Part shown: positions 13,431 to 64,000 of the stretch, in pieces | Position numbering within the stretch: position 1 is the first letter of the stretch | How the letters are laid out: each line of letters starts with the position of its first letter | Assembly (NCBI GenBank): GCA_017792465.1 | Contig: CP051234.1 | Span: 1,056,606-1,120,605, forward strand | Direction of reading: 5' to 3' | DNA length: 64,000 bases | Source: Filomicrobium sp. | GTDB taxonomy: Bacteria > Pseudomonadota > Alphaproteobacteria > Rhizobiales > Hyphomicrobiaceae | Made by a program: the position numbers and the translations under genes | The notes under the pieces: generated by a model | Told to the model about the DNA's origin: nothing | Databases searched by the model: none | The model's input: the letters and a program-made list of their open reading frames with translations, nothing else

Positions 13431-13464
13431 AAAAATGCCTGGCACCGTCTTCGTGATGCCAGGC
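13431..13464 (-). terminator. Rho-independent terminator of efp
   Basis: An 8-base-pair perfect stem (gcctggca 13437-13444 with tgccaggc 13457-13464) is followed on the minus strand by ATTTTT. It lies 63 bases beyond the efp stop codon. Confidence 0.8.
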
Positions 13465-13526
13465 CGTTCAACTTCCAGTCTTGATGGATCCCCGACTGCG
13501 CAGAGGCGATGCACTAAAGCGCCGCC

Positions 13527-14096
13527 TCAGTCTTTGGCGCGCTCGACGTATGAGCCATCTTCGGTCATGACGACGACGCGGGTGCCCGAACCGATATGCG
13601 GCGGCACCATGATCTTCGCGCCATTGTCGAGCACAGCAGGCTTATAGGACGAGGATGCTGTCTGACCTTTGACGACAGGGTCGGCCTCGACGATCTCGTA
13701 GGTCGCGCGCTGCGGCAGCGAGATCGAAATCGGATTGCCTTCGTGCATCGACAGCGTGCACACCATGGCTTCTTTCAACCAGATCGCCTGATCGCCAACG
13801 ACATCCTTCGACACGATCACCTGATCGTAGGTTTCGGGATGCATGAAGGTGTAGCCCTGCTCATCTTCGAACAAATAGCCGTAGTCGACTTCCTCGACGA
13901 ATGCCTTTTCGACCTGTTCGGTGGTGCGGTAGCGCTCGACGATCTTCACGCCATCTGAGATGCGGCGCATTTCGAGGTGCGTGACAGGGGTGCCCTTGCC
14001 GGGGTGGATGTTGTCGGCATTCATCACGACGGCCAATGCGCCGTTGATTTCCAAGACATTGCCTTTACGGATTGAGCTTGCGATTACCTTGACCAC
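13527..14096 (-). CDS. efp: Elongation factor P
   Basis: EF-P binds the ribosome between the P and E sites and relieves stalling at polyproline stretches. The 189-residue length and three beta-barrel domains are typical. The tip loop reads HPGKGT with Lys34 at the position that EpmA modifies with beta-lysine. The C-terminal signature is present ([27 protein letters not shown], whose Tyr-Lys-Pro-Ala part lies near residue 150). It is divergent from epmA-epmB, which encode the modifying enzymes, so substrate and enzymes sit side by side. Confidence 0.97.
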
Positions 14097-14259
14097 CTAG
14101 GACTCCGTTCGTTGTTCGGGCGCACTGGCCGGCCGACACTTCCCAGCGGATGAGACGTTTCGCGGCGTGCGGTTGATTCTGTTTGATCGCGCGGTTCTAC
14201 TCGTTCACGCGCCAATCGCCAAGTGCGGCTTCGTTTCGCTAAGGACGCCATATACGCCC

Positions 14260-15345
14260 ATGACCCCAACTTCGCCGTGGTGGAGCCCTGAGAGGCATGC
14301 TGATCGCCGGTCGTTTCTGAGCGCCAGAAACAGCATCAAAGAGGCACTTCGGGGCTGGTTTCTGGCCCAGGGGTTCACGGAAATCGATCCGGGATGCTTG
14401 CAGGTTTCGCCGGGAAACGAGGCGCATTTACATGCCTTTGGAACCGATCTGATCACGCCCGAGCGCGCGCATCGGCGCATGTATTTGCACACTTCTCCCG
14501 AATTCGCCTGCAAAAAGCTGCTGGCGGCAGGCGAGCGCAAGCTGTTTACCTTTGCGCCCGTTTTTCGCAATTGCGAACGCGGACCGCTGCATGCGCCGGA
14601 GTTTACCATGCTGGAATGGTACAGGGCGGGCGACGACGGCGATGAGCAGTATCCTGCTATCCAGCAGGACTGCCTCGATCTCATCCGGATCGCGGTGGAG
14701 GCTTCGGGTCAGGGTGCCTGCCGCTGGAAACGGCGGTTTGGCTCTAGCGCGGCGCCGGCGCTTTACCGGACCGTGCCGCAAATCATCCTAGAGCTTCTCG
14801 GGGTCGATCTTTTGGCATCGATTGACGGAAGCGGCGAGCCAGACAGGGAAACTCTCGCCGCAGACGCGGAAAAAGCCGGTATCCGCACGTCGCCTGAGGA
14901 GAGTTGGGGCGATATTTTCTCGAAATTGATGATCGACGTCGAAGTCCGCTACAGCGAGCTTTCGGATGTTGCCGCTCCAGATGGGCATGAGCGGGCGTTC
15001 CTGCTTGATGGCTATCCGTCCGTGATGTCTCCATTGGCGCGGCCGGACGAGAAAAATCAACGACTTGCCAAACGCTTTGAGATCTTCATGTGCGGCATCG
15101 AGCTTGCCAACGGGTTTGGTGAAAGCAACGACGCCGAGCGCGTTCGCGCGGCACTTACCCAACAAATGGCCGAGAAATTCGCCATCTATGGAGAGCAATA
15201 TCCCGTAGACGAGGAGTTCATTGCTGCGCTATCCGTATTGCCCCCAATGACTGCCGGATGCGCCATGGGGTTTGACCGCCTCGTGATGCTGGCCACCGGC
15301 GCAACTCATATCGATCAAGTGCTCTGGACACCGCTTGCCTTATGA
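14260..15345 (+). CDS. epmA: EF-P lysine lysyltransferase (GenX / PoxA type)
   Basis: EpmA is a truncated class II lysyl-tRNA synthetase paralogue that attaches (R)-beta-lysine to EF-P instead of charging tRNA. The 361-residue protein lacks the N-terminal anticodon-binding domain, as expected. Class II motifs are present: motif 2 FRNCERGPLHAPEFTMLEWY and motif 3 GCAMGFDRLVML. The Gln/Val segment PGCLQVSPGNEAHLHAF near residue 50 is typical of the alphaproteobacterial form. The ATG at 14260 was chosen because the protein then starts with the usual short N-terminus (TPWW-like SPWWSPERHADRR); the frame is open to 14167. Its stop overlaps the epmB start as ATGA, so the two are translationally coupled. 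Confidence 0.94.
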   Translation: MTPTSPWWSPERHADRRSFLSARNSIKEALRGWFLAQGFTEIDPGCLQVSPGNEAHLHAFGTDLITPERAHRRMYLHTSPEFACKKLLAAGERKLFTFAPVFRNCERGPLHAPEFTMLEWYRAGDDGDEQYPAIQQDCLDLIRIAVEASGQGACRWKRRFGSSAAPALYRTVPQIILELLGVDLLASIDGSGEPDRETLAADAEKAGIRTSPEESWGDIFSKLMIDVEVRYSELSDVAAPDGHERAFLLDGYPSVMSPLARPDEKNQRLAKRFEIFMCGIELANGFGESNDAERVRAALTQQMAEKFAIYGEQYPVDEEFIAALSVLPPMTAGCAMGFDRLVMLATGATHIDQVLWTPLAL

Positions 15346-16481
15346 ATTTTGTAGATCAGCGTTTCAAAATTTCGAACGAAGACGGTATTCAAAAATTTGG
15401 CTCTTCGGACCGGGCGCCCGGACAGTCGCAGGACAAGACGCTGCGCACGCTGCAGGACCTTCGCGACGCGCAGCTCATTTCCGACAACGAAACCGAGCTT
15501 CTGCAGGACGTCGTCGGCAAATATGCGGTGGCCGTCACGCCCGAGATCGTCGAGCTGATCGATGAGAGCGATCCGGCCGACCCGATGGCGCGCCAGTTCA
15601 TTCCGACAATCGGCGAAATGGATGTTCGCGCCGATGAGATAAGCGATCCCATCGGTGACGACCTGAAATCGCCGGTTCGCGGGCTCGTGCATCGCTATCA
15701 TGACCGGGTGTTGCTGAAAGCCGTTGGCGTCTGCCCGGTTTATTGCCGCTTCTGCTTCCGCCGGGAAATGGTCGGTCCGGAGAACAACGGCAATCTCAAC
15801 GACCATGAGCTTGATCTGGCGGTCGGTTATATCGCCGATCACCCGGAAATTTGGGAAGTCATCGTCAGCGGTGGCGACCCACTCGTCCTCTCGCCCCGGC
15901 GCATCAACGAGCTGATCCAGCGACTTGCGGCAATCGAACATGTGAAGGTCATCCGCTGGCACACGCGCGTTCCCGTCGTTTCCCCCAAGCTTGTCACGGA
16001 CGAGTTGGTTGCGGCCCTCACCAGCACAGGCAAGTCGGTCTACGTGGCGGTGCATTCCAACCACCCGCGCGAACTGACCGATGCCGCGCGCGCTGCCTGC
16101 CGGAAACTTGCCGGTTCGGGCATCTCCCTCATCAGCCAGAGCGTGCTATTGCGCGGCGTGAACGATGATGTCGAGACGCTCGAAGCGTTGATGCGCGGGT
16201 TCGTCGAAACGGGCATCAAACCATATTATCTGCACCACATGGATAAGGCACCCGGCACCGGTCATTTCCGCGTGCCAATCGAGGCCGGTCAGACGCTGGT
16301 TCAGCAATTGCGCCATCGGCTGTCGGGTCTGGCTATGCCGACCTATGTGCTCGATATCCCCGGCGCATACGGCAAAGTCCCCATCGGGCCTGAGCACATC
16401 GAGCAGGATTCAAGCGATGGCGACAGCTATCTGGTGACCGATCCGAACGGCGTGCAGCATCGCTATCAGGACAGCCGCTGA
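15342..16481 (+). CDS. epmB: EF-P beta-lysylation protein, lysine 2,3-aminomutase family
   Basis: EpmB is a radical SAM, PLP-dependent aminomutase that turns lysine into (R)-beta-lysine for EpmA. The 379-residue protein carries the iron-sulfur cluster motif CPVYCRFC (Cys131, Cys135, Cys138), the GGDPL motif (IVSGGDPLVLSP), and near the C-terminus DIPGAYGKVPIG, where the PLP-binding lysine is expected. It lacks the long C-terminal extension of catabolic KamA. Starting inside epmA by a 4-base ATGA overlap, and with efp divergent next door, the EF-P modification role is preferred over lysine fermentation. Confidence 0.92.
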   Translation: MNFVDQRFKISNEDGIQKFGSSDRAPGQSQDKTLRTLQDLRDAQLISDNETELLQDVVGKYAVAVTPEIVELIDESDPADPMARQFIPTIGEMDVRADEISDPIGDDLKSPVRGLVHRYHDRVLLKAVGVCPVYCRFCFRREMVGPENNGNLNDHELDLAVGYIADHPEIWEVIVSGGDPLVLSPRRINELIQRLAAIEHVKVIRWHTRVPVVSPKLVTDELVAALTSTGKSVYVAVHSNHPRELTDAARAACRKLAGSGISLISQSVLLRGVNDDVETLEALMRGFVETGIKPYYLHHMDKAPGTGHFRVPIEAGQTLVQQLRHRLSGLAMPTYVLDIPGAYGKVPIGPEHIEQDSSDGDSYLVTDPNGVQHRYQDSR

Positions 16482-16607
16482 ACAGGCGTGGCAGGTAGCG
16501 TAGCTGGTGGCAATGCACGGACTGCTGAATTCCTGGCGGCGTGCGCCTTGATGTCTCTGTCGTGCGCGCTTTGCCCCCGGCCCGGCTTGTGAGATATCTC
16601 CGGCGTG

Positions 16608-17567
16608 ATGCGAAACCCGTTGCTACCATTCTTCTGTCTGCTGCTGTTGGCGTTCATTGTGACGCCTAACCGAGCGCTGCTTGCTGGTCCGACAACCGAG
16701 ACTGCCGTGCTGCCGGTTTGGCGAGAGATCTTTGCGCGGCCGAAAGATCCGCTCGCCGACCTTCCCGCTCCGGCGGACAATCCCTTCAGCGAGGCCAAAG
16801 CGAGACTTGGGCAGGCGCTGTTTTTAAATCCTCGGCTATCGGGCGACGACGCGCGTGCATGCGTGAGCTGCCATGACCCTGAGCGCGGCTTCACCGATGG
16901 TCTCAAACGGGCGGCCCCGCGCGATGGGAAAACCGAACTTGCTAACGCGCCGTCGCTCCTGAACCTCGCGTGGTCGAAGCATTTCTTCTGGGACGGGCGG
17001 GCAGACAGCCTAGAAGACCAGGCTTGGCAGCCGATCGAGAACCGTCAGGAGATGGCGGGCGCTTGGCCGAAAATTGTTGCCGACCTTGCTGCCGATCACG
17101 ATACGGCCGACATGTTCCGCGCCGCCTTTGGGGCTGATGCGACCCCCTCGAAAACAACGGTTACGCAGGCGCTGGCGACCTATGTCAGGTCGATTGTTTC
17201 GCCGGCCGGGAGGTTTGACCGCTTTATCGACGGCGACATTGATGCGCTTTCAGCCGAAGAGCGCGCGGGGTTTCGGCTGTTCGTCGGCAAGGGCGGATGT
17301 GCAGGTTGCCACTGGGGCTGGCGCTTCACCGACGACAGGATGCATCTAACCGGAATTGGCAGTATCCCGATCAAAACGCCCGGTCTGCGGCAGATTTCCA
17401 AGACCGCCCCTTACATGCATGACGGCTCGAAGACGACGCTGGACGAGGTTATTTCGCACTATACGTCGCTTTCCGGCGATCGTAGCTTGTCGCCAAATTT
17501 GGTTCGGCCGTTGGCGCTGGACAGCCAGGATGTGCGCGATCTGATCGCCTTTCTAAAGGCATTATAA
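16608..17567 (+). CDS. Di-haem cytochrome c peroxidase / MauG-family protein
   Basis: A 319-residue periplasmic protein with a signal peptide (PLLPFFCLLLLAFIVT) and two c-type haem sites: CVSCH at 85-89 and CAGCH at 231-235. The spacing and blocks such as ARLGQALFLNPRLSGDD, FFWDGRADSLEDQAWQPI and GLRQISKTAPYMHDGS match the bacterial di-haem peroxidase / MauG family, which reduces H2O2 or oxidises protein side chains. No methylamine dehydrogenase genes are adjacent, so a maturation role cannot be claimed. A GTG at 16605 directly precedes the ATG at 16608. It runs in the same direction as epmB, 126 bases downstream, and may have its own promoter. Confidence 0.88.
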   Translation: MRNPLLPFFCLLLLAFIVTPNRALLAGPTTETAVLPVWREIFARPKDPLADLPAPADNPFSEAKARLGQALFLNPRLSGDDARACVSCHDPERGFTDGLKRAAPRDGKTELANAPSLLNLAWSKHFFWDGRADSLEDQAWQPIENRQEMAGAWPKIVADLAADHDTADMFRAAFGADATPSKTTVTQALATYVRSIVSPAGRFDRFIDGDIDALSAEERAGFRLFVGKGGCAGCHWGWRFTDDRMHLTGIGSIPIKTPGLRQISKTAPYMHDGSKTTLDEVISHYTSLSGDRSLSPNLVRPLALDSQDVRDLIAFLKAL

Positions 17568-18043
17568 CGGCGTCGGCGACCGCCTAACCCGCGGTTTTGG
17601 CTGTGAATTTCGTTCACACCTGCGACACCCTCTAGAGATTAAATTTGCGCCTGAACCTGTTTCATTTAGGGCTCAATGGGCAAAAATTCTCGATCTAGAT
17701 CAAAGCAAGCTCGACATTTTTTGCTTGCGTTGCGCGTATAGAAGCGCTGAATTGCTTGATGAACGCCGTCCTATAAAGGTTGTCCGCTTGGCTTGTGGAG
17801 TTTTTCTACAGGACGTTCTTGAGCGGCATTGGACGATGATTTGAGGCTTGAACAGCCATTTGTTCCGTTTCCTCAACCCCGCAGAGGTAACGGAGCTGGT
17901 GGCCACCGGGGGGTCTTCCCCTGGATCGCGCTCCTGGCGGTGCCCTCTGCCAGGAGCGTTGCTTTTGGGATCTCGCGATCGTCAATCAAACGGTCGTTTC
18001 CGCGATGATCGGGCCGTTTGCAATGATCCCGCCGCGTCCGCTT
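17568..18043. other. Gene-free region holding a structured RNA candidate
   Basis: No protein gene is supported. A weak stem (accgc 17579-17583 with gcggt 17591-17595, then TTT) may end the MauG-like transcript. The right half holds the candidate RNA described separately, with possible -10 like boxes (tatagaa near 17739, ctataaa near 17771) upstream of it. Start points were not assigned. Confidence 0.5.
17842..17966 (+). ncRNA. Candidate structured non-coding RNA ending in a terminator hairpin
   Basis: Three nested or alternative structures are visible. A first hairpin ttgagg...cctcaa encloses gaaca...tgttc. Next, gcagagg (17881-17887) can pair with cctctgc (17944-17950) and ggagc (17892-17896) with gctcc (17930-17934), around an inner ccggggg/cccctgg hairpin. 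In competition with that, cgctcctggc (17929-17938) pairs perfectly with gccaggagcg (17949-17958), followed by ttgctttt, as a rho-independent terminator. No gene lies downstream on the plus strand, so it is not a simple leader. A 6S-like RNA of about 180-220 bases is possible but could not be confirmed by sequence. Confidence 0.42.
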
Positions 18044-56583: not shown

Positions 56584-57465
56584 TTATTGCCAGGGGTAGT
56601 TGGGCCGCTCATCCAACGGTGTCGGCTCAAGCTCCTCGTCCGACTTGCCGTTCGCATCGGGCGCGAGCCTTCGGACCATCAAATAGAGCTCGCGCGTGAG
56701 CTCCATTCGGTTGGTCGGGTTCTCCAACTTCGAAAACGGCACGATCTCGCCGACGTGGATGTTGAAGGTCGAATTCGGCATATAGCGGAACTCTGAGACC
56801 AATAGCGACAGGCGCAGGGTCAGGGACAAACGGCTGACGGCATGAAACAGCGCGCTGTTCTGCCCCTCAAAATGGACCGGCAGCACGGAGGCCTCGGCGA
56901 GCTGGATCAGGCGCGCCGTGAAGGTTTTCCAGGGCAGTTCTTCGGCCTGACCGAATGGATTGGCTGCCGTCGCGACGCCGCCGGCTGGAAACACGATGAT
57001 CGTCACGCCCTCTTTCAGGAGCCGGCGCGCCTCCGCGCGCGAATTGAGATTCATTTCGACGGCTTCGCGCGATTCTGAAAAATCGATCGGCAAGGCATAG
57101 GGGCGGACTTCGGGGACGCGCAGCAGATCGTTGTTGATGAGAACCTTGAAGGGCCGCCCCAGCTGCTCGGCCAGCGCCAGGGACGCGACGCCATCACCGA
57201 TGCCGAAGGGGTGGTTGGCAATCATCACGAGTTTGGTGGACGGTTCGATATGCGGCGGCCAAGGCGATTTCGAGTGGATGCTCAAATCGACATCGATGAG
57301 GTCGAGACCGTCGCCCATCAAGTGGTCGGACTTGCCGACGAACTCCGCGCGCCACTTGCGATAATGCGGAAGGATCGAGCGACGGCCTGAAATATCCTCG
57401 ATCGCCGCGATCAGCCATCGCTTCCACAAAGGGTCCGTCGGCGTGACGAAACTCAGTTCCCGCAT
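56584..57465 (-). CDS. Lysophospholipid acyltransferase family (PlsC-like) protein
   Basis: A 293-residue acyltransferase of the glycerophospholipid type. The H-x5-D active-site form NHPFGIGDG is at about residue 92, then VIINNDLL-like VLINNDLLRVPE, IVFPAGGVATA (motif III) and LPVHFEGQNSALFH. It could acylate lysophosphatidate, ornithine or a related lipid; the substrate is not predictable. It has no membrane helix of note. The ATG at 57465 follows AAGGCGAC; a much longer open frame upstream lacks coding character. Confidence 0.83.
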   Translation of the reverse strand: MRELSFVTPTDPLWKRWLIAAIEDISGRRSILPHYRKWRAEFVGKSDHLMGDGLDLIDVDLSIHSKSPWPPHIEPSTKLVMIANHPFGIGDGVASLALAEQLGRPFKVLINNDLLRVPEVRPYALPIDFSESREAVEMNLNSRAEARRLLKEGVTIIVFPAGGVATAANPFGQAEELPWKTFTARLIQLAEASVLPVHFEGQNSALFHAVSRLSLTLRLSLLVSEFRYMPNSTFNIHVGEIVPFSKLENPTNRMELTRELYLMVRRLAPDANGKSDEELEPTPLDERPNYPWQ

Positions 57466-57674
57466 GTCGCCTTGATGCCTAGATGGGGTCGCCTTTTTAA
57501 AAGGCAGGACGAAGTGAGCCAGAGCCACAGGTAGTTTCGCTCTGGCCTTTTGGAAATATCTTTGGGGCAACAACCAAGAGCAAAAGCGACGCAGCGCAGG
57601 TTGGCCATCGTCGCTGTTCGTTGCCTTGAGTTGTAACGCCAGCCTTTTTTCGCGGACCTTGATGGGGCCGCTAT

Positions 57675-58592
57675 TCACTCCGGCAGGGGGATGAATTCGT
57701 CGGAATCGCCTGGCACGGTGTCGAAGCGACCCTGGCGCCAATCCTCTTTTGCGGCCGCAATGCGGTCTTTCGAGGAGGAGACGAAATTCCACCAGATATG
57801 GCGTGGGCCGTCCATCGGTTCGCCGCCGAGGACGATGAGCCGGGCGTTGGATGTGGCGAGGATCGAGATGCGGTCGCCGGGATGGAAGACGAGCAGGCGA
57901 CCGGCGCTGAACGTATCGCCGGCGATGTCGATCTCGCCTGAAATGATAAAGACGGCGCGCTCATCGTAGTCCGGCTCCAACGGTAGCACGGCGCCGGGAG
58001 CCAGGACCGCTTCGGCATAGAACGAGGGATGCGGGAATTCGGTCGGGGCCGTTTCGCCGTACATGCTGCCGAGCATCAAACGGACCCGCTTTCCATCGCC
58101 TTCGATGCGGGGAAGGTCTTCTGCCTTCATGTGCGCGAAGGTGGGGGCTTTTTCTTCGTGCGACTTGGGCAAGGCCGCCCACAGCTGCGTTCCAAACAGG
58201 CGAGAGACTTTCTGGCGCTCCTCGGCGCTGGCGCGCTCCGAGTGGACTATGCCCTGGCCGGCGGTCATGAGATTGAGTTCACCGGGCCTTATCGGCTGCT
58301 CGGTTCCCAGGCTGTCGCGGTGCATGATTTCGCCGTCGAAAAGATAGGTGACCGTCGCCAGGCCGATATGCGGGTGCGGCCTCACATCAATGCCGTCGCC
58401 CAGCAGAAATTCGGCTGGACCGAACTGATCGAAGAAAATAAACGGACCGACCATCTGCCGACCGGCGGCGGGCAGCGCGCGGCGAACTTCGAAGCCGCCC
58501 AGATCGCGCGCGCGCGGAACGATCACTTCATCGACGAGATCGACGGATTGTGCATTTCCAAATTGCGGGTCGTCACAGGGCTGCCAGCTCAT
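57675..58592 (-). CDS. Pirin family protein
   Basis: A 305-residue double cupin. The N-terminal cupin has the metal motif pattern (RPHPHIGLATVTYLFDG, EIMHRDSLG, and later HSERAS), matching the three His and one Glu of pirins; the C-terminal half is typical (AVFIISGEIDIAGDTFSAGRLLV). Some pirins are quercetin dioxygenases or transcription co-factors. The ATG at 58592 has GGAG upstream; the TTG at 58598 is rejected. It lies 110 bases downstream of the esterase gene in the same direction and may be read with that operon. Confidence 0.9.
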   Translation of the reverse strand: MSWQPCDDPQFGNAQSVDLVDEVIVPRARDLGGFEVRRALPAAGRQMVGPFIFFDQFGPAEFLLGDGIDVRPHPHIGLATVTYLFDGEIMHRDSLGTEQPIRPGELNLMTAGQGIVHSERASAEERQKVSRLFGTQLWAALPKSHEEKAPTFAHMKAEDLPRIEGDGKRVRLMLGSMYGETAPTEFPHPSFYAEAVLAPGAVLPLEPDYDERAVFIISGEIDIAGDTFSAGRLLVFHPGDRISILATSNARLIVLGGEPMDGPRHIWWNFVSSSKDRIAAAKEDWRQGRFDTVPGDSDEFIPLPE

Positions 58593-58702
58593 GATCAAGC
58601 TCCTTCATCGCGTCAAAAGGCCAATGGCACCATAACGCGAAGACGGGGGGCAGAAACCAGCCTGTTAACGGGAACGTGAACCGGCGTTTGGGACGAGCCT
58701 TG

Positions 58703-59731
58703 TCACGCTTGCTCGATGGAGCGGCCATAGCAGTTCGGCGCCAGGCGCAGGAGGGAACGAATTCCTTCTCCCAGGGCCGCAAATTCGGCCGCCGCCGCCG
58801 GGCTCATCGAGCGCGCGCGCAAATGGCCGTGAGATAGCTTTGCAGCACAGCGGTATTCCACCGGTATGCCGTCTTCTTTCAGGCGCTGCGCATAAAGAGC
58901 ACCATCGTCGCGGCATGGATCGAAGTTCGCGGTTGTAATGAACGCCGGCGGAAGGCCGATAAAGCTCTCGGCCATCAAAGGCGCCGCATACGGGTTGTCG
59001 GCGTGCTGGCCCTTATTCGTATAAAGCGACCAGAAATATTCGAGCGACTCGGCGGTCAGCATCGGCGCAACGCTTTGCTCCTCGTAGGAGGGTAGATCGC
59101 CCTTCGCCGTCAAAGCCGGATAGATCAGGACCTGGCCGGCAGGCATCCGCATCCGAGCCGCTCGCGCCTTCAGGCACACGGCTACCGCGAGTGCTGCTCC
59201 GGCACTATCGCCGCCAACCACAGTACAATCGGGATCGAACCCGATCTTGTCGGCGTTGGCTTGAACGTACTTCCACACGCGTACAGCATCGTCGAACGCC
59301 GCCGGGAACGGATTTTCCGGTGCCAGCCGGTAACCGACGCTGATGGCAATCGTCGAGGTTGCAAGCGCCAGTTCGGCGACCACGCAATCGTGGCTTTCAA
59401 TGGAGCCTAAGGCAAAGCCACCGCCGTGAAAGAAGACAAGACCATGGGCGGGGCGTTCGTCGCGTTCGACCGGTTCATAGATCCGGATCGGGACCGGGTC
59501 GGCTGCGCCGTCGATGGTGGCCATATCGCGAATGCGCACACCGGCCGGGCGATTGCGCGTAAATCGGCGCGCGAACTTGTCGTACATGCGCCGTTGTTCC
59601 GCCATCGACGGCTCGGGCGGCTGGCTCGCCGCCATGGCGTCAACCTCAGCAACAAACCGGCGCATACCGGTGCACAGATCGAAATCCGCCCATGGATCCA
59701 TCGATTGCGCAACTTCCACATACCTAGCCAT
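58703..59731 (-). CDS. Alpha/beta hydrolase of the hormone-sensitive lipase group
   Basis: A 342-residue esterase. The oxyanion motif HGGGFALG, the nucleophile GDSAGAALA and the acid/base pair (ANFDPCRDDG and the His in KLSHGHLR) form the expected series of the bacterial HSL (Aes-like) group. An N-terminal extension of about 75 residues precedes the fold. Its ATG overlaps the stop of the upstream acyltransferase as ATGA (59729-59733), so it is translated with it. Position suggests that it hydrolyses or edits the polyketide product, but this is an inference. Confidence 0.9.
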   Translation of the reverse strand: MARYVEVAQSMDPWADFDLCTGMRRFVAEVDAMAASQPPEPSMAEQRRMYDKFARRFTRNRPAGVRIRDMATIDGAADPVPIRIYEPVERDERPAHGLVFFHGGGFALGSIESHDCVVAELALATSTIAISVGYRLAPENPFPAAFDDAVRVWKYVQANADKIGFDPDCTVVGGDSAGAALAVAVCLKARAARMRMPAGQVLIYPALTAKGDLPSYEEQSVAPMLTAESLEYFWSLYTNKGQHADNPYAAPLMAESFIGLPPAFITTANFDPCRDDGALYAQRLKEDGIPVEYRCAAKLSHGHLRARSMSPAAAAEFAALGEGIRSLLRLAPNCYGRSIEQA

Positions 59732-61503
59732 CAGGCAGCCTTTTGCTGAACAAGTTCCAGCGTCGTTCGCATATCGTGCAAGGCGCGCACGATTTCGCTG
59801 ACAAAGCGGCTGGAATCCGTTTCTGGATGCGAATGGAAACTCGTGACGTTGATGTTGATATGGTCGTTCTTGATGATGTAGCCAATGCCGTATCCGCCTG
59901 GGCAAACCGGTCCGAAATGGTTCACGAACCCGACCTGCATCGGCAGCTGGGCCGTCGACAGCTCCCAGCCGCGGTTGAAGATTTCCTGGCTGAAGAGCGA
60001 CGGCAATTTGCTGACGCCGGCCTCCTTGGCGATCAGCTTCAGACCGAGCATATGGCGATCGCAGGCCTGAGCGGCGGAAGCCTCCTTGCCGCGCTTTGAA
60101 TGTTCGGCAAACGCGGCGCGCAGCTTTTCTACTTTCTCTTCGGGCGCGACGGTCATGTCGTCCATGACTTTGACGAAGGCGAGCGCTTCATTCGACGCGG
60201 TGCGGATGGTCTCGGTACGCCCCCCCTTATACATGCGGGTCGACGCGGCTTCGTAGGTCTTGGGCAGGCGGCCGTACATCCGGTAATAGGCCAGCATGTA
60301 GGACATCTGCAGGAACGGATCCGGACCGGTCTTGAAGGTCTTGATGAGGTCCTTGCCGAAAGCGTCGAAGTGCACGATGCGCAAGTCGAGATCGCGCGTC
60401 AGGCCGTCGAAGACAGCGCTGGCGCTGGCGATATCGTTGGCGGTCTCGAAGGGCAGATCCCAGGTCAGTTCGGCAATCTCCGGAGCCGTCGAGGTTTGCT
60501 GTTCGGGAAGCGGATCAGCCGGCGCGGCAATCGCTTCGATCAACGGCACCCATGCGCCCGCATCGACGGGGGAGTGCTCGCCATGCAGCGTGAAGCGGCC
60601 CTGCGGATCGATGACGAGATGGAGGCTCTTGTCGTGCCATCGGTTGCCTTTCTGGCCATAAAGACCGGCACGGGCGAGGTCTTCGTAGTTGGCGGCGATC
60701 TCGTCATCCAGGCAGACGAGGAACAAGGCGCGATCGATGCGATCGAGGGTCTGGCGATTTTGCGGGATGGCCGCGAGGCGGTCGCGTGCTGTTGCCCAAT
60801 CGGGCCGGCGGGCTGCCGTCAGGACTGCGACCGGCTGCACGGGCGGTGCGGCATCGGCCGCGGCAATGACATCGCGGAAGCGAACCATCAGATCACCGTC
60901 GGACATGCGATGGCCTTCGGCGTCGATCACGTCGAGTTCGTACAGGCGGTGCTTGCGGATGACGACGATATGGTGGCTCTGGCTGCCGCCGAAGGTAGCG
61001 ATCCGGTCGCCATGCGTGCCGGGATAGCGGTTGGTGGCAAAGAAGCGCTTCAGAAGCGACATGTCGAAGCCGGAGCCGTCGCGCTGAACTTCCGGCGGCA
61101 TCGTTTCGTTTTCGATCGACTGATAGAAGTTGATCGTGCCACCGGTCAGCTGGGCTGCCCGCATGGCCTGATCGCCGGGCGCATATCGAGCATCGGAAGA
61201 GATCCCGATCGATGAATTGACGACGAGCGATTCAGGATAGCTCAGATAGGCATAATCCTCCCACCAGCCTGACAGCCAGTTGTCCTTTTCTTTTCCGCGG
61301 GCTTCGAGTGCGGCCTGAAGTTTTCGACCCTCGCCACCTGGAGCCAGAAGCTCTTCGACGGCCTCGACGGTGCTATCGAATTCGAACGGATCAAGCAGCG
61401 GCTGGACGCTTTCCAGATAGCGCCGGGCTGAATCTTCAAGCGAGGGCACGGGTAGCGACGGAAGGGTCTTGTCGAGATCAAAAGTTCGCAGTTTCGCAGT
61501 CAT
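59731..61503 (-). CDS. Choline/carnitine O-acyltransferase family protein
   Basis: A 590-residue member of the carnitine acyltransferase family, unusual in bacteria. The catalytic His is in LHGEHSPVDAGAW (about 310). Further family blocks are GGRTETIRTASNEALAFV, LSTAQLP (the STSQ-type motif), YGIGYIIKNDHININVTSF and, earlier, SQSHHIVVIRKHRLYEL. It joins the upstream polyketide synthase by an ATGA overlap (61500-61503) and the downstream esterase by another. Such a gene directly behind a synthase that lacks a thioesterase suggests acyl transfer from the carrier protein to a hydroxyl acceptor. The acceptor is unknown, and a role in carnitine metabolism cannot be excluded. Confidence 0.85.
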   Translation of the reverse strand: MTAKLRTFDLDKTLPSLPVPSLEDSARRYLESVQPLLDPFEFDSTVEAVEELLAPGGEGRKLQAALEARGKEKDNWLSGWWEDYAYLSYPESLVVNSSIGISSDARYAPGDQAMRAAQLTGGTINFYQSIENETMPPEVQRDGSGFDMSLLKRFFATNRYPGTHGDRIATFGGSQSHHIVVIRKHRLYELDVIDAEGHRMSDGDLMVRFRDVIAAADAAPPVQPVAVLTAARRPDWATARDRLAAIPQNRQTLDRIDRALFLVCLDDEIAANYEDLARAGLYGQKGNRWHDKSLHLVIDPQGRFTLHGEHSPVDAGAWVPLIEAIAAPADPLPEQQTSTAPEIAELTWDLPFETANDIASASAVFDGLTRDLDLRIVHFDAFGKDLIKTFKTGPDPFLQMSYMLAYYRMYGRLPKTYEAASTRMYKGGRTETIRTASNEALAFVKVMDDMTVAPEEKVEKLRAAFAEHSKRGKEASAAQACDRHMLGLKLIAKEAGVSKLPSLFSQEIFNRGWELSTAQLPMQVGFVNHFGPVCPGGYGIGYIIKNDHININVTSFHSHPETDSSRFVSEIVRALHDMRTTLELVQQKAA

Positions 61504-64000
61504 CCGGCAGGTTCCTCGCGAATTGATTTTTTATGGGGGGCGGTCGCAAGAGGCGCGCCTGCCTCAAGCTCGCTCCCAGCAGGCCGCGCGCATAGAGCAT
61601 CCAGCCTCTGAGCCAGAAGCCTGGGAGTTGGATAATCGAAAATGTCGCCAATGCTCACATCGATGCCCCGCGGCAGTCTGCCACGCAAATCCAAGGCGAG
61701 TTGCGCGGCCAACAGGCTGTCTCCTCCTAGTTCAAAGAAATCGGCATCAAGTTCAAGATCGCGGGACCCAATCACTTTGGCGTAAGCCTTCAGAATGAGA
61801 GCGGTTGTGGGGTTGGAATCATTGGCTTTTTGCCATTGTGCAACGCCGTTGCCGGGGGCTTTGTAAAATGGTGCAACATCGTCGCCTGCGACCAGTTGGC
61901 CACATGAACGCATCGCCCAGCGCGCGATACGCGGCGCGAGTGGTGTGGCGCTCAGGACAATCTGATGCACGGCGGGTTCACCCAGGACGGCTTCGATGGC
62001 GGCTAAGCCATCCGCTACAGGCATGGCTAAACCTTGGCGCGTGTGGGTAAACGCGGCGACCTGCTCCTTGGTGTAGTCGAAATCCCAATCGTCGAAATTA
62101 ACGCTGATCCAGCGCACGCCGCCCGGCATCGGATCGGCGGCGACGGTGGCGTCGAGGTAGCGGTTTGCGGCGGCATAACCCGTCATTCCCAGGCCGCCGA
62201 GGATCGAGGCGAGGGATGAAAACATCATGACGAAGTTTGGCCGGATGGCGCGTTCCTCGCCGATGCGGTGAAGCGCGTTTCGCAGGTTGTCGGTGCCGGT
62301 AATTTTGGAAGCGGCCTCAGCGGCAATTGTCTCCGCGGTAGTGTCTTGCAGATAGCGCAGATCGGCGAGACCGGCACAGTGAAAGATGCCACCGAGGCCG
62401 TTGTGCTCATCGGTAATGGAACTGAGGGTTTGAAGCAGGGCCGTTTCGTCGCTGACGTCGCACTGTCGGTAGGTGATCTGATTGGCGCGGTCACCGAACA
62501 GCTCTTCGCTTTCGGTCTGGTTCGGCGATTGGCGGCGCCCTAGCAGAATAGCTTTGCATCCAGTCACCGCCAGATGGCGCGCGAGAGCCAGCCCGATCCG
62601 GCCAAGCCCTCCGGTGATGACGTGCGGTGCAGATGACTTTGTGAGGATTTCGGCACCGCGCTGGCGAGAGCCATCATCTAGTGGCGCCTGCTCGAAACGC
62701 TCAACCCAGCGATGGCGGCCTCGGAGAGCCACGATCGGTTCGGAGCGCGGTCCGCTAGCAGCGACCTCTTCGCCGAGCATTGCAGCAGTGTTGCTGGTTG
62801 CGGCAGCGGATGCGACTTCGGGTGAAGCGTTGTCAATGTCGATGAGGCGCGTGCGCAAGCGCGGATCTTCCTGCGCAGTAACCAGTAACGGCCCGATGAG
62901 CGGGGCGAGGTTTGGTGAGATGTTTTCGCCGGCGACTTCGACTGCACCGGACGTCACCAGCCAATAATCGAGCCCGCTTCGCAACGGCCAGGACCGCAAG
63001 TTGGCGAATGTCTCTGCCAGCATCGCAGCCGAAGCGACTGGAGCAGGGTCGGCTTGTCCCATGAAGCTCAGGTCGACAACGCGCAGCGGGCCTTGCCCTT
63101 CGCTTAGTAGGGAAATGAGTTCGGTCGCAGCGGCAAGATAAGATTGCCGGTCGACGGTGCAGCCGATTTCGATGACCTCGCAGCCGCGCGTGTCCAGCAG
63201 GCCTGCGAGGCTTTGGCTGATATCGCCTCCCAGGCCGTCCGTCGGGGCGAGAATGGCGATGCGTCCATGCCAGCCTTCTCCTGCGTCGGGCGGCAGGCTC
63301 CTTGCCCAAGACGGCAAATAGAACATGTCAGTCCAGGCAACCCGCGTTTCGCGCTCGGGTACCGGTTTCAATGCGGTCGTTTCGGAATGCGCCAGATCGT
63401 CGGATGGCCAGCAACGATGGCGCTCGAAAGCATAGCCGGGTAATGCGACGCGCCGAAAAGGCCGATGTTCGCGCAGGCTCTCCCAATCGATCTCGATGCC
63501 CGACTGCCAGAGGCTCGCCAAAGACGCTGCCAATGCACCTGGTTCGTTGGAGGGATCGTTCTCGGCTCCACCCAGCAACGAGATGACCGCCGGCGATGCG
63601 GCTGATGAATTTGCGCCGTCGGTTGCGCGATCTTGAGTTTCGTTGCCCGCCCGAACGACACAGCTGTGCAAGGCGCGGCAGAGGCTGCGGCCGGGGCCGA
63701 CTTCGATGATGGCGGTGGGGGCCAGGTCCTGCAACGCGCGCACGCAGTCGGCGAACAAAACCGGAGACAGCATGGCACGCGCCCAATAGCCGGGATCGTT
63801 CGTCTCGTCGTCGGTCCACCAACGGCCTGTCGCGTTGGCAGCCATCGGGATTGACGGCGACTGCATCACGAGACCGTTGCAAGCCCGTTCCAGATCGTCG
63901 GCCGCTGGCGTCATCAATGGAGAGTGGAAGGCGTGGTCGACCGGGACGCGGCGGGCGGCAATTGACGCGCGTGCAGCTTCTTGTTCAGCAGTTGCGATGT
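61500..64000 (-). CDS. Type I polyketide synthase, C-terminal part (AT-KR-ACP)
   Basis: The frame is open at the right edge; about 832 residues of the C-terminus are seen. From the edge inward: the end of an acyltransferase domain with HAFHS (63921-63935, the malonyl-CoA-type motif), then GYWARAMLSPVLF and VGPGRSLCRAL. The linker LPGYAFERHRCW comes next, then a structural ketoreductase half, and a ketoreductase with TGGLGRIG, SSLAS and GYAAANRYLD (catalytic Ser, Tyr and Asn). Last is an acyl carrier domain with FFELGGDSLLAAQ (phosphopantetheine Ser), about 72 residues before the end. There is no thioesterase and no dehydratase between AT and KR. Confidence 0.95.
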   Translation of the reverse strand, partial: IATAEQEAARASIAARRVPVDHAFHSPLMTPAADDLERACNGLVMQSPSIPMAANATGRWWTDDETNDPGYWARAMLSPVLFADCVRALQDLAPTAIIEVGPGRSLCRALHSCVVRAGNETQDRATDGANSSAASPAVISLLGGAENDPSNEPGALAASLASLWQSGIEIDWESLREHRPFRRVALPGYAFERHRCWPSDDLAHSETTALKPVPERETRVAWTDMFYLPSWARSLPPDAGEGWHGRIAILAPTDGLGGDISQSLAGLLDTRGCEVIEIGCTVDRQSYLAAATELISLLSEGQGPLRVVDLSFMGQADPAPVASAAMLAETFANLRSWPLRSGLDYWLVTSGAVEVAGENISPNLAPLIGPLLVTAQEDPRLRTRLIDIDNASPEVASAAATSNTAAMLGEEVAASGPRSEPIVALRGRHRWVERFEQAPLDDGSRQRGAEILTKSSAPHVITGGLGRIGLALARHLAVTGCKAILLGRRQSPNQTESEELFGDRANQITYRQCDVSDETALLQTLSSITDEHNGLGGIFHCAGLADLRYLQDTTAETIAAEAASKITGTDNLRNALHRIGEERAIRPNFVMMFSSLASILGGLGMTGYAAANRYLDATVAADPMPGGVRWISVNFDDWDFDYTKEQVAAFTHTRQGLAMPVADGLAAIEAVLGEPAVHQIVLSATPLAPRIARWAMRSCGQLVAGDDVAPFYKAPGNGVAQWQKANDSNPTTALILKAYAKVIGSRDLELDADFFELGGDSLLAAQLALDLRGRLPRGIDVSIGDIFDYPTPRLLAQRLDALCARPAGSELEAGAPLATAPHKKSIREEPAG

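What the first reader, a model, noticed from the sequence alone, without database searches (positions are those of the whole stretch)
58703..64000. Polyketide operon with a free-standing carnitine-type acyltransferase in place of a thioesterase
Seen: the synthase ends KR-ACP-stop with no thioesterase. It is joined by ATGA overlaps to a carnitine/choline O-acyltransferase-family gene (59731-61503) with catalytic-type His and STSQ-like motifs, which is joined in turn to an HSL-type esterase (58703-59731). Known: carnitine acyltransferase-family proteins are uncommon in bacteria, and a fungal highly reducing polyketide synthase with a fused carnitine-acyltransferase domain releases its product onto a polyol. 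Inference: here a bacterial operon uses a separate acyltransferase to move the chain from the carrier protein to an acceptor, with the esterase for editing or release. The pirin and PlsC-like genes next door may belong to the same lipid or polyketide context.
Basis: partly seen in the sequence, partly recalled or inferred. Interest (0 to 1): 0.85.

Follow-up and report, generated by a model that had tools for sequence, protein, structure and literature searches.

The report
Bacterial polyketide-style pathway making carnitine
A bacterium appears to build carnitine, a molecule bacteria have not been known to make from scratch, by extending glycine betaine on a small polyketide-type enzyme, with a neighbouring enzyme then attaching acyl groups to it.

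Summary
The genes are real, but the window cuts the synthase. The full protein (2,452 aa) is TE-A-T-KS-AT-KR-T, so a thioesterase is present at its N terminus. Divergent from it lie glycine/sarcosine and sarcosine/dimethylglycine-type N-methyltransferases, which would make glycine betaine. The adenylation domain lacks the amino-group-binding Asp and has the short hydrophobic loop reported for the betaine enzyme ATRR and the DMSP-loading BurA. Betaine plus one malonyl unit plus ketoreduction gives carnitine. The acyltransferase keeps the carnitine-carboxylate triad (Tyr, Thr, Arg) and CoA-site residues of animal carnitine acetyltransferase, so it should acylate free carnitine from acyl-CoA, not unload the carrier protein. 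A distant bacterium of the same phylum (G767) carries the same kind of synthase and both methyltransferases beside a carnitine acyltransferase only ~27% identical; a tree test rejects one clade for the two acyltransferases (p 0.001). Separate pairing points to carnitine as the product. Pirin and PlsC genes are old neighbours: a congener lacking synthase and acyltransferase keeps them beside the methyltransferases. [quoted passage not shown] my open-access literature searches listed no such pathway. Nothing was tested at the bench; the product is inferred.

The parts
61500..64000 (-). C-terminal part (residues ~1620-2452) of a TE-A-T-KS-AT-KR-T NRPS-PKS, proposed carnitine synthase; continues outside the window to G000:C1:1125463; GSMT and SDMT genes follow outside the window at G000:C1:1125867-1127515 (+)
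63630..64000 (-). C-terminal part of the AT domain, with the HAFH motif (malonyl type; meaning recalled)
62091..62624 (-). KR domain; GYAAAN Tyr motif kept, ADL in place of LDD
61602..61796 (-). C-terminal carrier domain (LGGDS)
59731..61503 (-). carnitine O-acyltransferase (PF00755): H310, Y417/T430/R483 triad, STAQ, N528
58703..59731 (-). HSL-type alpha/beta hydrolase, possible acylcarnitine esterase; separable member
57675..58598 (-). pirin; ancestral neighbour, not part of the system
56584..57792 (-). PlsC/OlsF-like acyltransferase; ancestral neighbour, not part of the system

Best explanation
The locus is a de novo carnitine and acylcarnitine pathway. Step 1: GSMT and SDMT-type enzymes methylate glycine to glycine betaine (inferred from families). 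Step 2: the A domain adenylates glycine betaine and loads it on the first carrier domain (inferred from the pocket). Step 3: KS condenses it with malonyl from AT on the second carrier domain and KR reduces the 3-keto group, giving carnitinyl-ACP (inferred from domain order; E. coli expressing the related BurA and fed DMSP makes the sulfonium analogue gonyol, PMC7496086). Step 4: the fused N-terminal TE releases free carnitine (inferred). Step 5: the carnitine acyltransferase transfers an acyl group from acyl-CoA to carnitine; the HSL esterase may reverse this (inferred). The end use is probably as a compatible solute and/or acyl-group buffer (least certain).
For: Full synthase is TE-A-T-KS-AT-KR-T; the motifs tested in TE, KS, AT, KR and both carrier domains are present, with HAFH in the AT. 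A glycine/sarcosine methyltransferase over its curated cut-off (479 vs 350 bits) and an SDMT-family protein lie divergent to it. A domain: the loop of the amino-group-binding Asp is 5 residues shorter than in LgrA and hydrophobic (NVFFVWE or NIFFVWE), with Asp in the A5 region (NDYSISECHD), in 4 of 4 synthases aligned (L002, L015, L031, L040); PMC7496086 reports a shorter hydrophobic loop and an acidic pocket residue as shared by BurA and the glycine-betaine A domain ATRR. G767, a distant genome of the same phylum, has the same architecture, A domain 47-51% identical, GSMT 63% and SDMT 49% (GSMT over cut-off) and a convergent acyltransferase, in another gene order. The two acyltransferases are ~27% identical, the Filomicrobium one grouping with the animal CrAT (100/99); AU test rejects one clade (p 0.00125). 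Both keep H343, Y452, T465, R518 and F566 of CrAT; ChAT (1t1u) has V and N at T465 and R518; 10 of 10 same-order acyltransferases without this neighbourhood have Q at R518. G767's cluster is flanked by two genes with mechanosensitive-channel domains. The two GBBH-like_N hits in the window's genome are a 510-aa P-loop protein that I read as Mrp/ApbC-like and a 143-aa protein, not a BBOX-type enzyme.
Against: No biochemical or metabolite evidence. GSMT-SDMT also occur in congeners where no synthase or acyltransferase was found (G220, and G1001 at 85% completeness), so they are not exclusive to the pathway. The SDMT proteins score below the NCBIfam cut-off (377 and 321 vs 550). Pocket residues are assigned by alignment, not by structure. 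Relative to CrAT the Filomicrobium enzyme has S454A, S554A and N at 564; G767's has W102M, K419Y, S552T, Q555G and C at 564, so acyl specificity is unknown. Two other unlinked bacterial acyltransferases (L041, L042) also keep Y, T and R, so the triad alone does not mark this pathway. One congener's synthase (L031 = G1002) lacks the AT domain in frame. Related rhizobial TE-A-T-KS-AT(-KR) synthases come without an acyltransferase on plasmids, so the architecture alone does not imply carnitine. Tree sampling is sparse with long branches. G767 is a single MAG, and 1 of 48 genomes of its order has the synthase.
Confidence: 0.72

Rival explanations
1. One reading: the acyltransferase unloads the polyketide chain from the carrier protein onto a small acceptor, as fungal PKS-fused cAT domains do.
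For: Translational overlap with the synthase; a fungal cAT domain offloads an ACP-bound chain to a polyol (PMC10901484 passages).
Against: A thioesterase is fused to the synthase; K419, K423 and D430 of the CoA site and the carnitine-carboxylate triad are kept in 4 of 4 Filomicrobium proteins compared; free-standing, not fused.
Confidence: 0.1
2. The synthase makes carnitinyl-ACP and the acyltransferase acylates its hydroxyl while still bound, so that the TE releases acylcarnitine directly.
For: Gene overlap; the bound product would present the trimethylammonium and hydroxyl groups.
Against: The carboxylate-binding Arg is kept in both lineages, which a thioester would not need.
Confidence: 0.08
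3. The synthase uses another zwitterionic or N-methylated starter (dimethylglycine, sarcosine, DMSP, beta-alanine betaine), giving a carnitine analogue such as gonyol or a 4-amino-3-hydroxybutyrate derivative.
For: Pocket prediction is by analogy only; BurA, with similar reported pocket features, prefers DMSP (PMC7496086).
Against: The betaine-making pair is adjacent in both lineages and the acyltransferases have a carnitine-type site.
Confidence: 0.15
4. The genes are neighbours by chance: imported carnitine feeds the acyltransferase and the synthase makes something unrelated.
For: One BCCT-type transporter elsewhere in the genome; methyltransferases also stand without the cassette in the genus.
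Against: The same four genes are linked in a distant genome with changed order and a non-sister acyltransferase; in the four genus genomes at least 97% complete in which both could be judged, synthase A domain and acyltransferase are either both present (G000, G200, G1002) or both not found (G220).
Confidence: 0.07

Closest known systems
BurA, DMSP-primed NRPS-PKS (gonyol synthase) of the bur cluster (PMC7496086, parts 1 and 2 of 3 read; one passage of PMC12304814)
   Same: As reported: A domain without Asp235, short hydrophobic loop and acidic pocket residue; onium acid starter, one malonyl extension and ketoreduction on one monomodular protein. Gonyol is the sulfonium analogue of this kind of product.
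   Different: Here a fused N-terminal TE, glycine-betaine genes instead of DMSP genes, and a carnitine acyltransferase partner. The BurA sequence was not compared here.
ATRR, fungal and nematode glycine betaine reductase (PMC11050029 passages; the PNAS 2019 paper is not held)
   Same: NRPS-type A domain that activates glycine betaine.
   Different: ATRR reduces betaine to choline with two reductase domains; here KS-AT-KR would extend it.
Animal carnitine acetyltransferase (CrAT, e.g. PDB 2h3w, 1t7n; species mouse is recalled)
   Same: Full-length homology (E 7e-102), 37% identity, catalytic His and carnitine-binding residues kept.
   Different: Bacterial, inside a biosynthetic operon, STAQ motif and Asn at the Met564 acyl-pocket position (Met recalled; the pasted chain carries Gly).
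Fungal HR-PKS with fused cAT domain (Tv6-931, LtbA; PMC10901484 and PMC8582187 passages)
   Same: Same acyltransferase family working with a PKS.
   Different: Fused, and esterifying or offloading the PKS chain to a polyol; here free-standing, with a TE and a carnitine-type site.
Eukaryotic carnitine pathway from trimethyllysine (PMC8085414 abstract and passages)
   Same: Same proposed product.
   Different: Different precursors, enzymes and chemistry; no BBOX-type gene seen via the GBBH-like_N domain.
Glycine/sarcosine and sarcosine/dimethylglycine methyltransferases
   Same: NF051855 over cut-off in both lineages; NF041675 best family for the second enzyme.
   Different: Second enzyme is below its cut-off; here they sit beside a synthase that would consume the betaine.

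Membership tests
Carnitine/choline acyltransferase family (PF00755) | Full-length domain with catalytic His | tested here: met
   561 bits, residues 17-571 of 590; H310 aligns with H343
Carnitine (not choline) acyltransferase | Tyr452/Thr465/Arg518 that bind the carnitine carboxylate (roles recalled) | tested here: met
   Y, T, R in 4 of 4 Filomicrobium proteins and in G767's; V and N in ChAT 1t1u; Q at R518 in 10 of 10 unlinked same-order proteins; R kept in 2 other unlinked ones
Carnitine (not choline) acyltransferase | Activity on carnitine with acyl-CoA | not testable with these tools
   K419, K423, D430 CoA-site residues kept in Filomicrobium (roles recalled)
PKS-offloading cAT (fungal type) | cAT domain fused to the synthase | tested here: not met
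   Separate ORF 59731-61503
PKS-offloading cAT (fungal type) | Transfers the chain from ACP to an acceptor | not testable with these tools
   Only indirect: a TE is present in the synthase
Onium-acid-primed NRPS-PKS (BurA-like) | A-T-KS-AT-KR-T order with onium-type A pocket | tested here: met
   features as given in PMC7496086; pocket by alignment only
Onium-acid-primed NRPS-PKS (BurA-like) | Adenylates an onium acid | not testable with these tools
   needs an assay
GSMT (NF051855) | Score over curated cut-off | tested here: met
   479.4 and 464.9 vs 350 bits
SDMT (NF041675) | Score over curated cut-off | tested here: not met
   376.8 and 321.1 vs 550 bits, though by far the best family; works like an SDMT at most
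Eukaryotic-type carnitine synthesis | Gamma-butyrobetaine dioxygenase | tested here: inconclusive
   The two GBBH-like_N hits in the window's genome are not in dioxygenase-like proteins as I read them; no family search of these two was run and the dioxygenase domain was not searched

The most novel reading that the evidence does not exclude
Bacteria make carnitine de novo as a one-module polyketide primed with glycine betaine, a route unrelated to the eukaryotic trimethyllysine pathway, and two lineages have separately added carnitine acyltransferases to make acylcarnitines.
Probability: 0.68. Interest if true: 0.92.

Novelty: new variant of a known kind. Interest (0 to 1): 0.82.

Why it matters
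[quoted passage not shown] This locus gives a specific, testable bacterial route with different chemistry, suggests why some bacteria carry carnitine acyltransferases, and would offer a compact fermentation route from glycine and malonyl-CoA. It also points to a wider family of synthases primed with onium acids.

Tried and rejected
Offloading by the acyltransferase was rejected as main reading because a thioesterase is present and the carnitine and CoA residues are kept. Pirin and PlsC as partners were rejected by the G220 and G1001 loci. A plasmid search gave no acyltransferase match at E 1e-5. Related synthases on rhizobial plasmids were set apart: the first pocket Asp differs and no acyltransferase is linked. 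Searching G767's order found no second case (1 of 48 genomes). A structure prediction was considered but not run. Literature searches (listings seen, 15 of 158 listed) listed no report of a polyketide route to carnitine; the library is open-access only.
Full report
What is there. The window is G000:C1:1056606-1120605 of a 4.47 Mb single-contig genome. Related loci with titles come from Filomicrobium sp. MAGs and from MAGs titled only as alphaproteobacteria, so I call the genus Filomicrobium on that evidence. The acyltransferase at 59731-61503 is a full-length PF00755 protein and the only match of that family in the genome. The esterase (58703-59731) is an Abhydrolase_3 protein. The synthase is cut by the window end; read to its start it has 2,452 residues with the order thioesterase, adenylation, carrier, ketosynthase, acyltransferase, ketoreductase, carrier. 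The motifs tested in TE, KS, AT, KR and both carrier domains are present, and the AT has HAFH (that this means malonyl is recalled).

The neighbours. Divergent from the synthase, 403 bases away, lie two methyltransferase genes that overlap each other. The first protein scores 479 bits against the glycine/sarcosine N-methyltransferase model (cut-off 350); the second scores 377 against the sarcosine/dimethylglycine model (cut-off 550), its best family by far. Together they would make glycine betaine from glycine (recalled pathway). This is the observation that changes the reading.

The A domain. Against an amino-acid A domain (LgrA) the loop that carries the amino-group-binding Asp is five residues shorter and reads NVFFVWE. 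In the A5 region the motif is NDYSISECHDV, with Asp at two positions that are not acidic in LgrA (I map them to GrsA 322 and 330 from recall). PMC7496086 (parts 1 and 2 of 3 read) reports that in the DMSP-activating BurA A domain and the glycine-betaine-activating ATRR A domain the loop with that Asp is replaced by a shorter loop with hydrophobic residues, and that both have an acidic residue placed for a positively charged group. In that paper E. coli expressing burA and fed DMSP made gonyol. By the same chemistry glycine betaine gives 3-hydroxy-4-trimethylammonio-butyrate, which is carnitine. The KR has ADL in place of the LDD motif in 4 of 4 synthases aligned, which would fit an A-type KR and L-carnitine; this stereochemical point rests on recalled rules and is weak.

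The acyltransferase. It aligns along its length with animal carnitine acetyltransferase (E 7e-102), 37% identical. Trp102, His343, Lys419, Lys423, Asp430, Tyr452, Thr465, Arg518 and Phe566 of that enzyme are kept in 4 of 4 Filomicrobium proteins aligned (L002, L015, L030, L031; numbering anchored on the catalytic His, residue roles recalled). Choline acetyltransferase (1t1u) has Val and Asn at the Thr465 and Arg518 positions. Differences are Ser454 to Ala, Ser554 to Ala and Asn at 564. This profile fits an acyl-CoA:carnitine acyltransferase acting on free carnitine, hence after the thioesterase, and speaks against the carrier protein as donor.

Conservation in the genus. 5 of 9 genomes have the acyltransferase. 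The A domain at 58% or more is in 4 of 9 (G000, G200, G1002, G1003). G1003 (70% complete) has no acyltransferase match, but its contig ends inside the KS. Two further genomes (G1004, G1006) show only pieces of the synthase beside the acyltransferase, on short contigs (L030, L033). GSMT at 82% or more is in 7 of 9; in G1004 neither the A domain at 58% nor GSMT at 82% was found, although the assembly is rated 98% complete. In G220 (rated 100% complete; no acyltransferase, best A domain 33%) GSMT is followed directly by pirin, PlsC-like, sulfurtransferase and cysK genes; in G1001 (85%) the esterase alone stands between. So pirin and PlsC are old neighbours, the esterase is separable, and synthase plus acyltransferase look like one presence/absence unit beside the betaine genes.

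The independent case. The acyltransferase is rare: 12 of 297 genomes of the order by the Pfam model, 2 of 385 of the class sample and 3 of 398 of the phylum sample by the window's protein, each count including the window's genome. One of these, G767 (another family, 82% complete; G+C 39.8% on this contig and 39% on a piece of another contig), carries a 2,397-residue synthase of the same architecture, GSMT and SDMT downstream on the same strand, and a convergent acyltransferase. Identities to the window's proteins are KS 48%, A 47%, TE 37%, AT 37%, KR 30%, GSMT 63%, SDMT 49%, but the acyltransferases share only about 27%. On a tree of 18 proteins the Filomicrobium acyltransferases join the animal CrAT (100/99), and holding them together with G767's is rejected (p-AU 0.00125). 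The tool warns of long branches; sampling is sparse; the test was run after seeing the tree, though the group was set by linkage. G767's protein keeps His343, Tyr452, Thr465, Arg518 and Phe566 but has Met for Trp102, Tyr for Lys419, Thr for Ser552 and Gly for Gln555. The other 12 bacterial acyltransferases examined had no match to synthase, GSMT or SDMT in the fetched stretches (9-20 kb). Ten of these, from the same order, have Gln in place of Arg518; the other two (L041, L042) keep Tyr, Thr and Arg, so the triad does not by itself mark the pathway. G767's genes are flanked by two genes with mechanosensitive-channel domains, which fits osmolyte biology.

Searches for the synthase. With the A domain of G767, 2 of 398 phylum genomes pass E 1e-80 (G000 and G767) and 1 of 48 of its order; with the window's A domain, 2 of 385 class genomes pass 1e-75 (G000 and G035 at 39%). 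In plasmids 174 records match at 1e-60, best 40% identity; the first seven rows are Sinorhizobium and Mesorhizobium, six of them annotated as type I PKS. Two of these share the TE-A-T-KS-AT layout and, in the Mesorhizobium one, the short loop and the second pocket Asp but not the first. No plasmid has an acyltransferase match.

Rival pathways. Two GBBH-like_N domains in the window's genome lie in a 510-residue P-loop protein, which I read as Mrp/ApbC-like, and in a 143-residue protein, so there is no sign of a eukaryotic-type gamma-butyrobetaine dioxygenase by that domain (no family search of these two was run, and hits in the other genomes were not examined). One BCCT transporter exists elsewhere, so uptake of betaine or carnitine is possible.

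Literature. [quoted passage not shown] Searches listed no paper describing a polyketide route to carnitine or this locus; only listings were seen, capped at 15 of 158, and the library is open-access only. PMC10901484 (passages) describes a fungal cAT domain that offloads a chain to a polyol.

Verdict. Shown by sequence: the gene set, the full architecture, the residue patterns, the recurrence in a distant genome, and, in this sample, non-sister acyltransferases. Inferred: substrates, product, direction and physiological use.

Noticed in passing
L070:11317-16947 and L071:11200-18444: Rhizobial plasmids carry related TE-A-T-KS-AT synthases; the Sinorhizobium one has no KR hit and has nearby a dehydrogenase whose matches include carnitine dehydrogenase models, below cut-off. 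Possible further onium-acid synthases.
   Followed up: partly
L031:3637-9969: One congener's synthase is in frame but lacks the AT domain, so malonyl loading would need a separate AT.
   Followed up: partly
L033:1403-2021: Short contig where the start of the TE runs almost directly into the KR; an assembly collapse or an internal deletion of the synthase.
   Followed up: no
window 59731-61503: The acyltransferase is closer to animal carnitine acetyltransferase (37%) than to the 13 bacterial family members from other genera that were aligned (24-30%), which may mean transfer from a eukaryote; sampling is sparse.
   Followed up: partly
L016-L025: Ten same-order bacterial family members have Gln at the carnitine-carboxylate Arg position; five of them (L021-L025) also lose the Tyr and Thr, and L021 aligns Gln at the catalytic His. 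Their substrate is probably not carnitine.
   Followed up: partly
L040:1-1755 and 13454-17857: Two mechanosensitive-channel-domain genes flank the G767 cluster, one with a laminin-G-like domain.
   Followed up: partly
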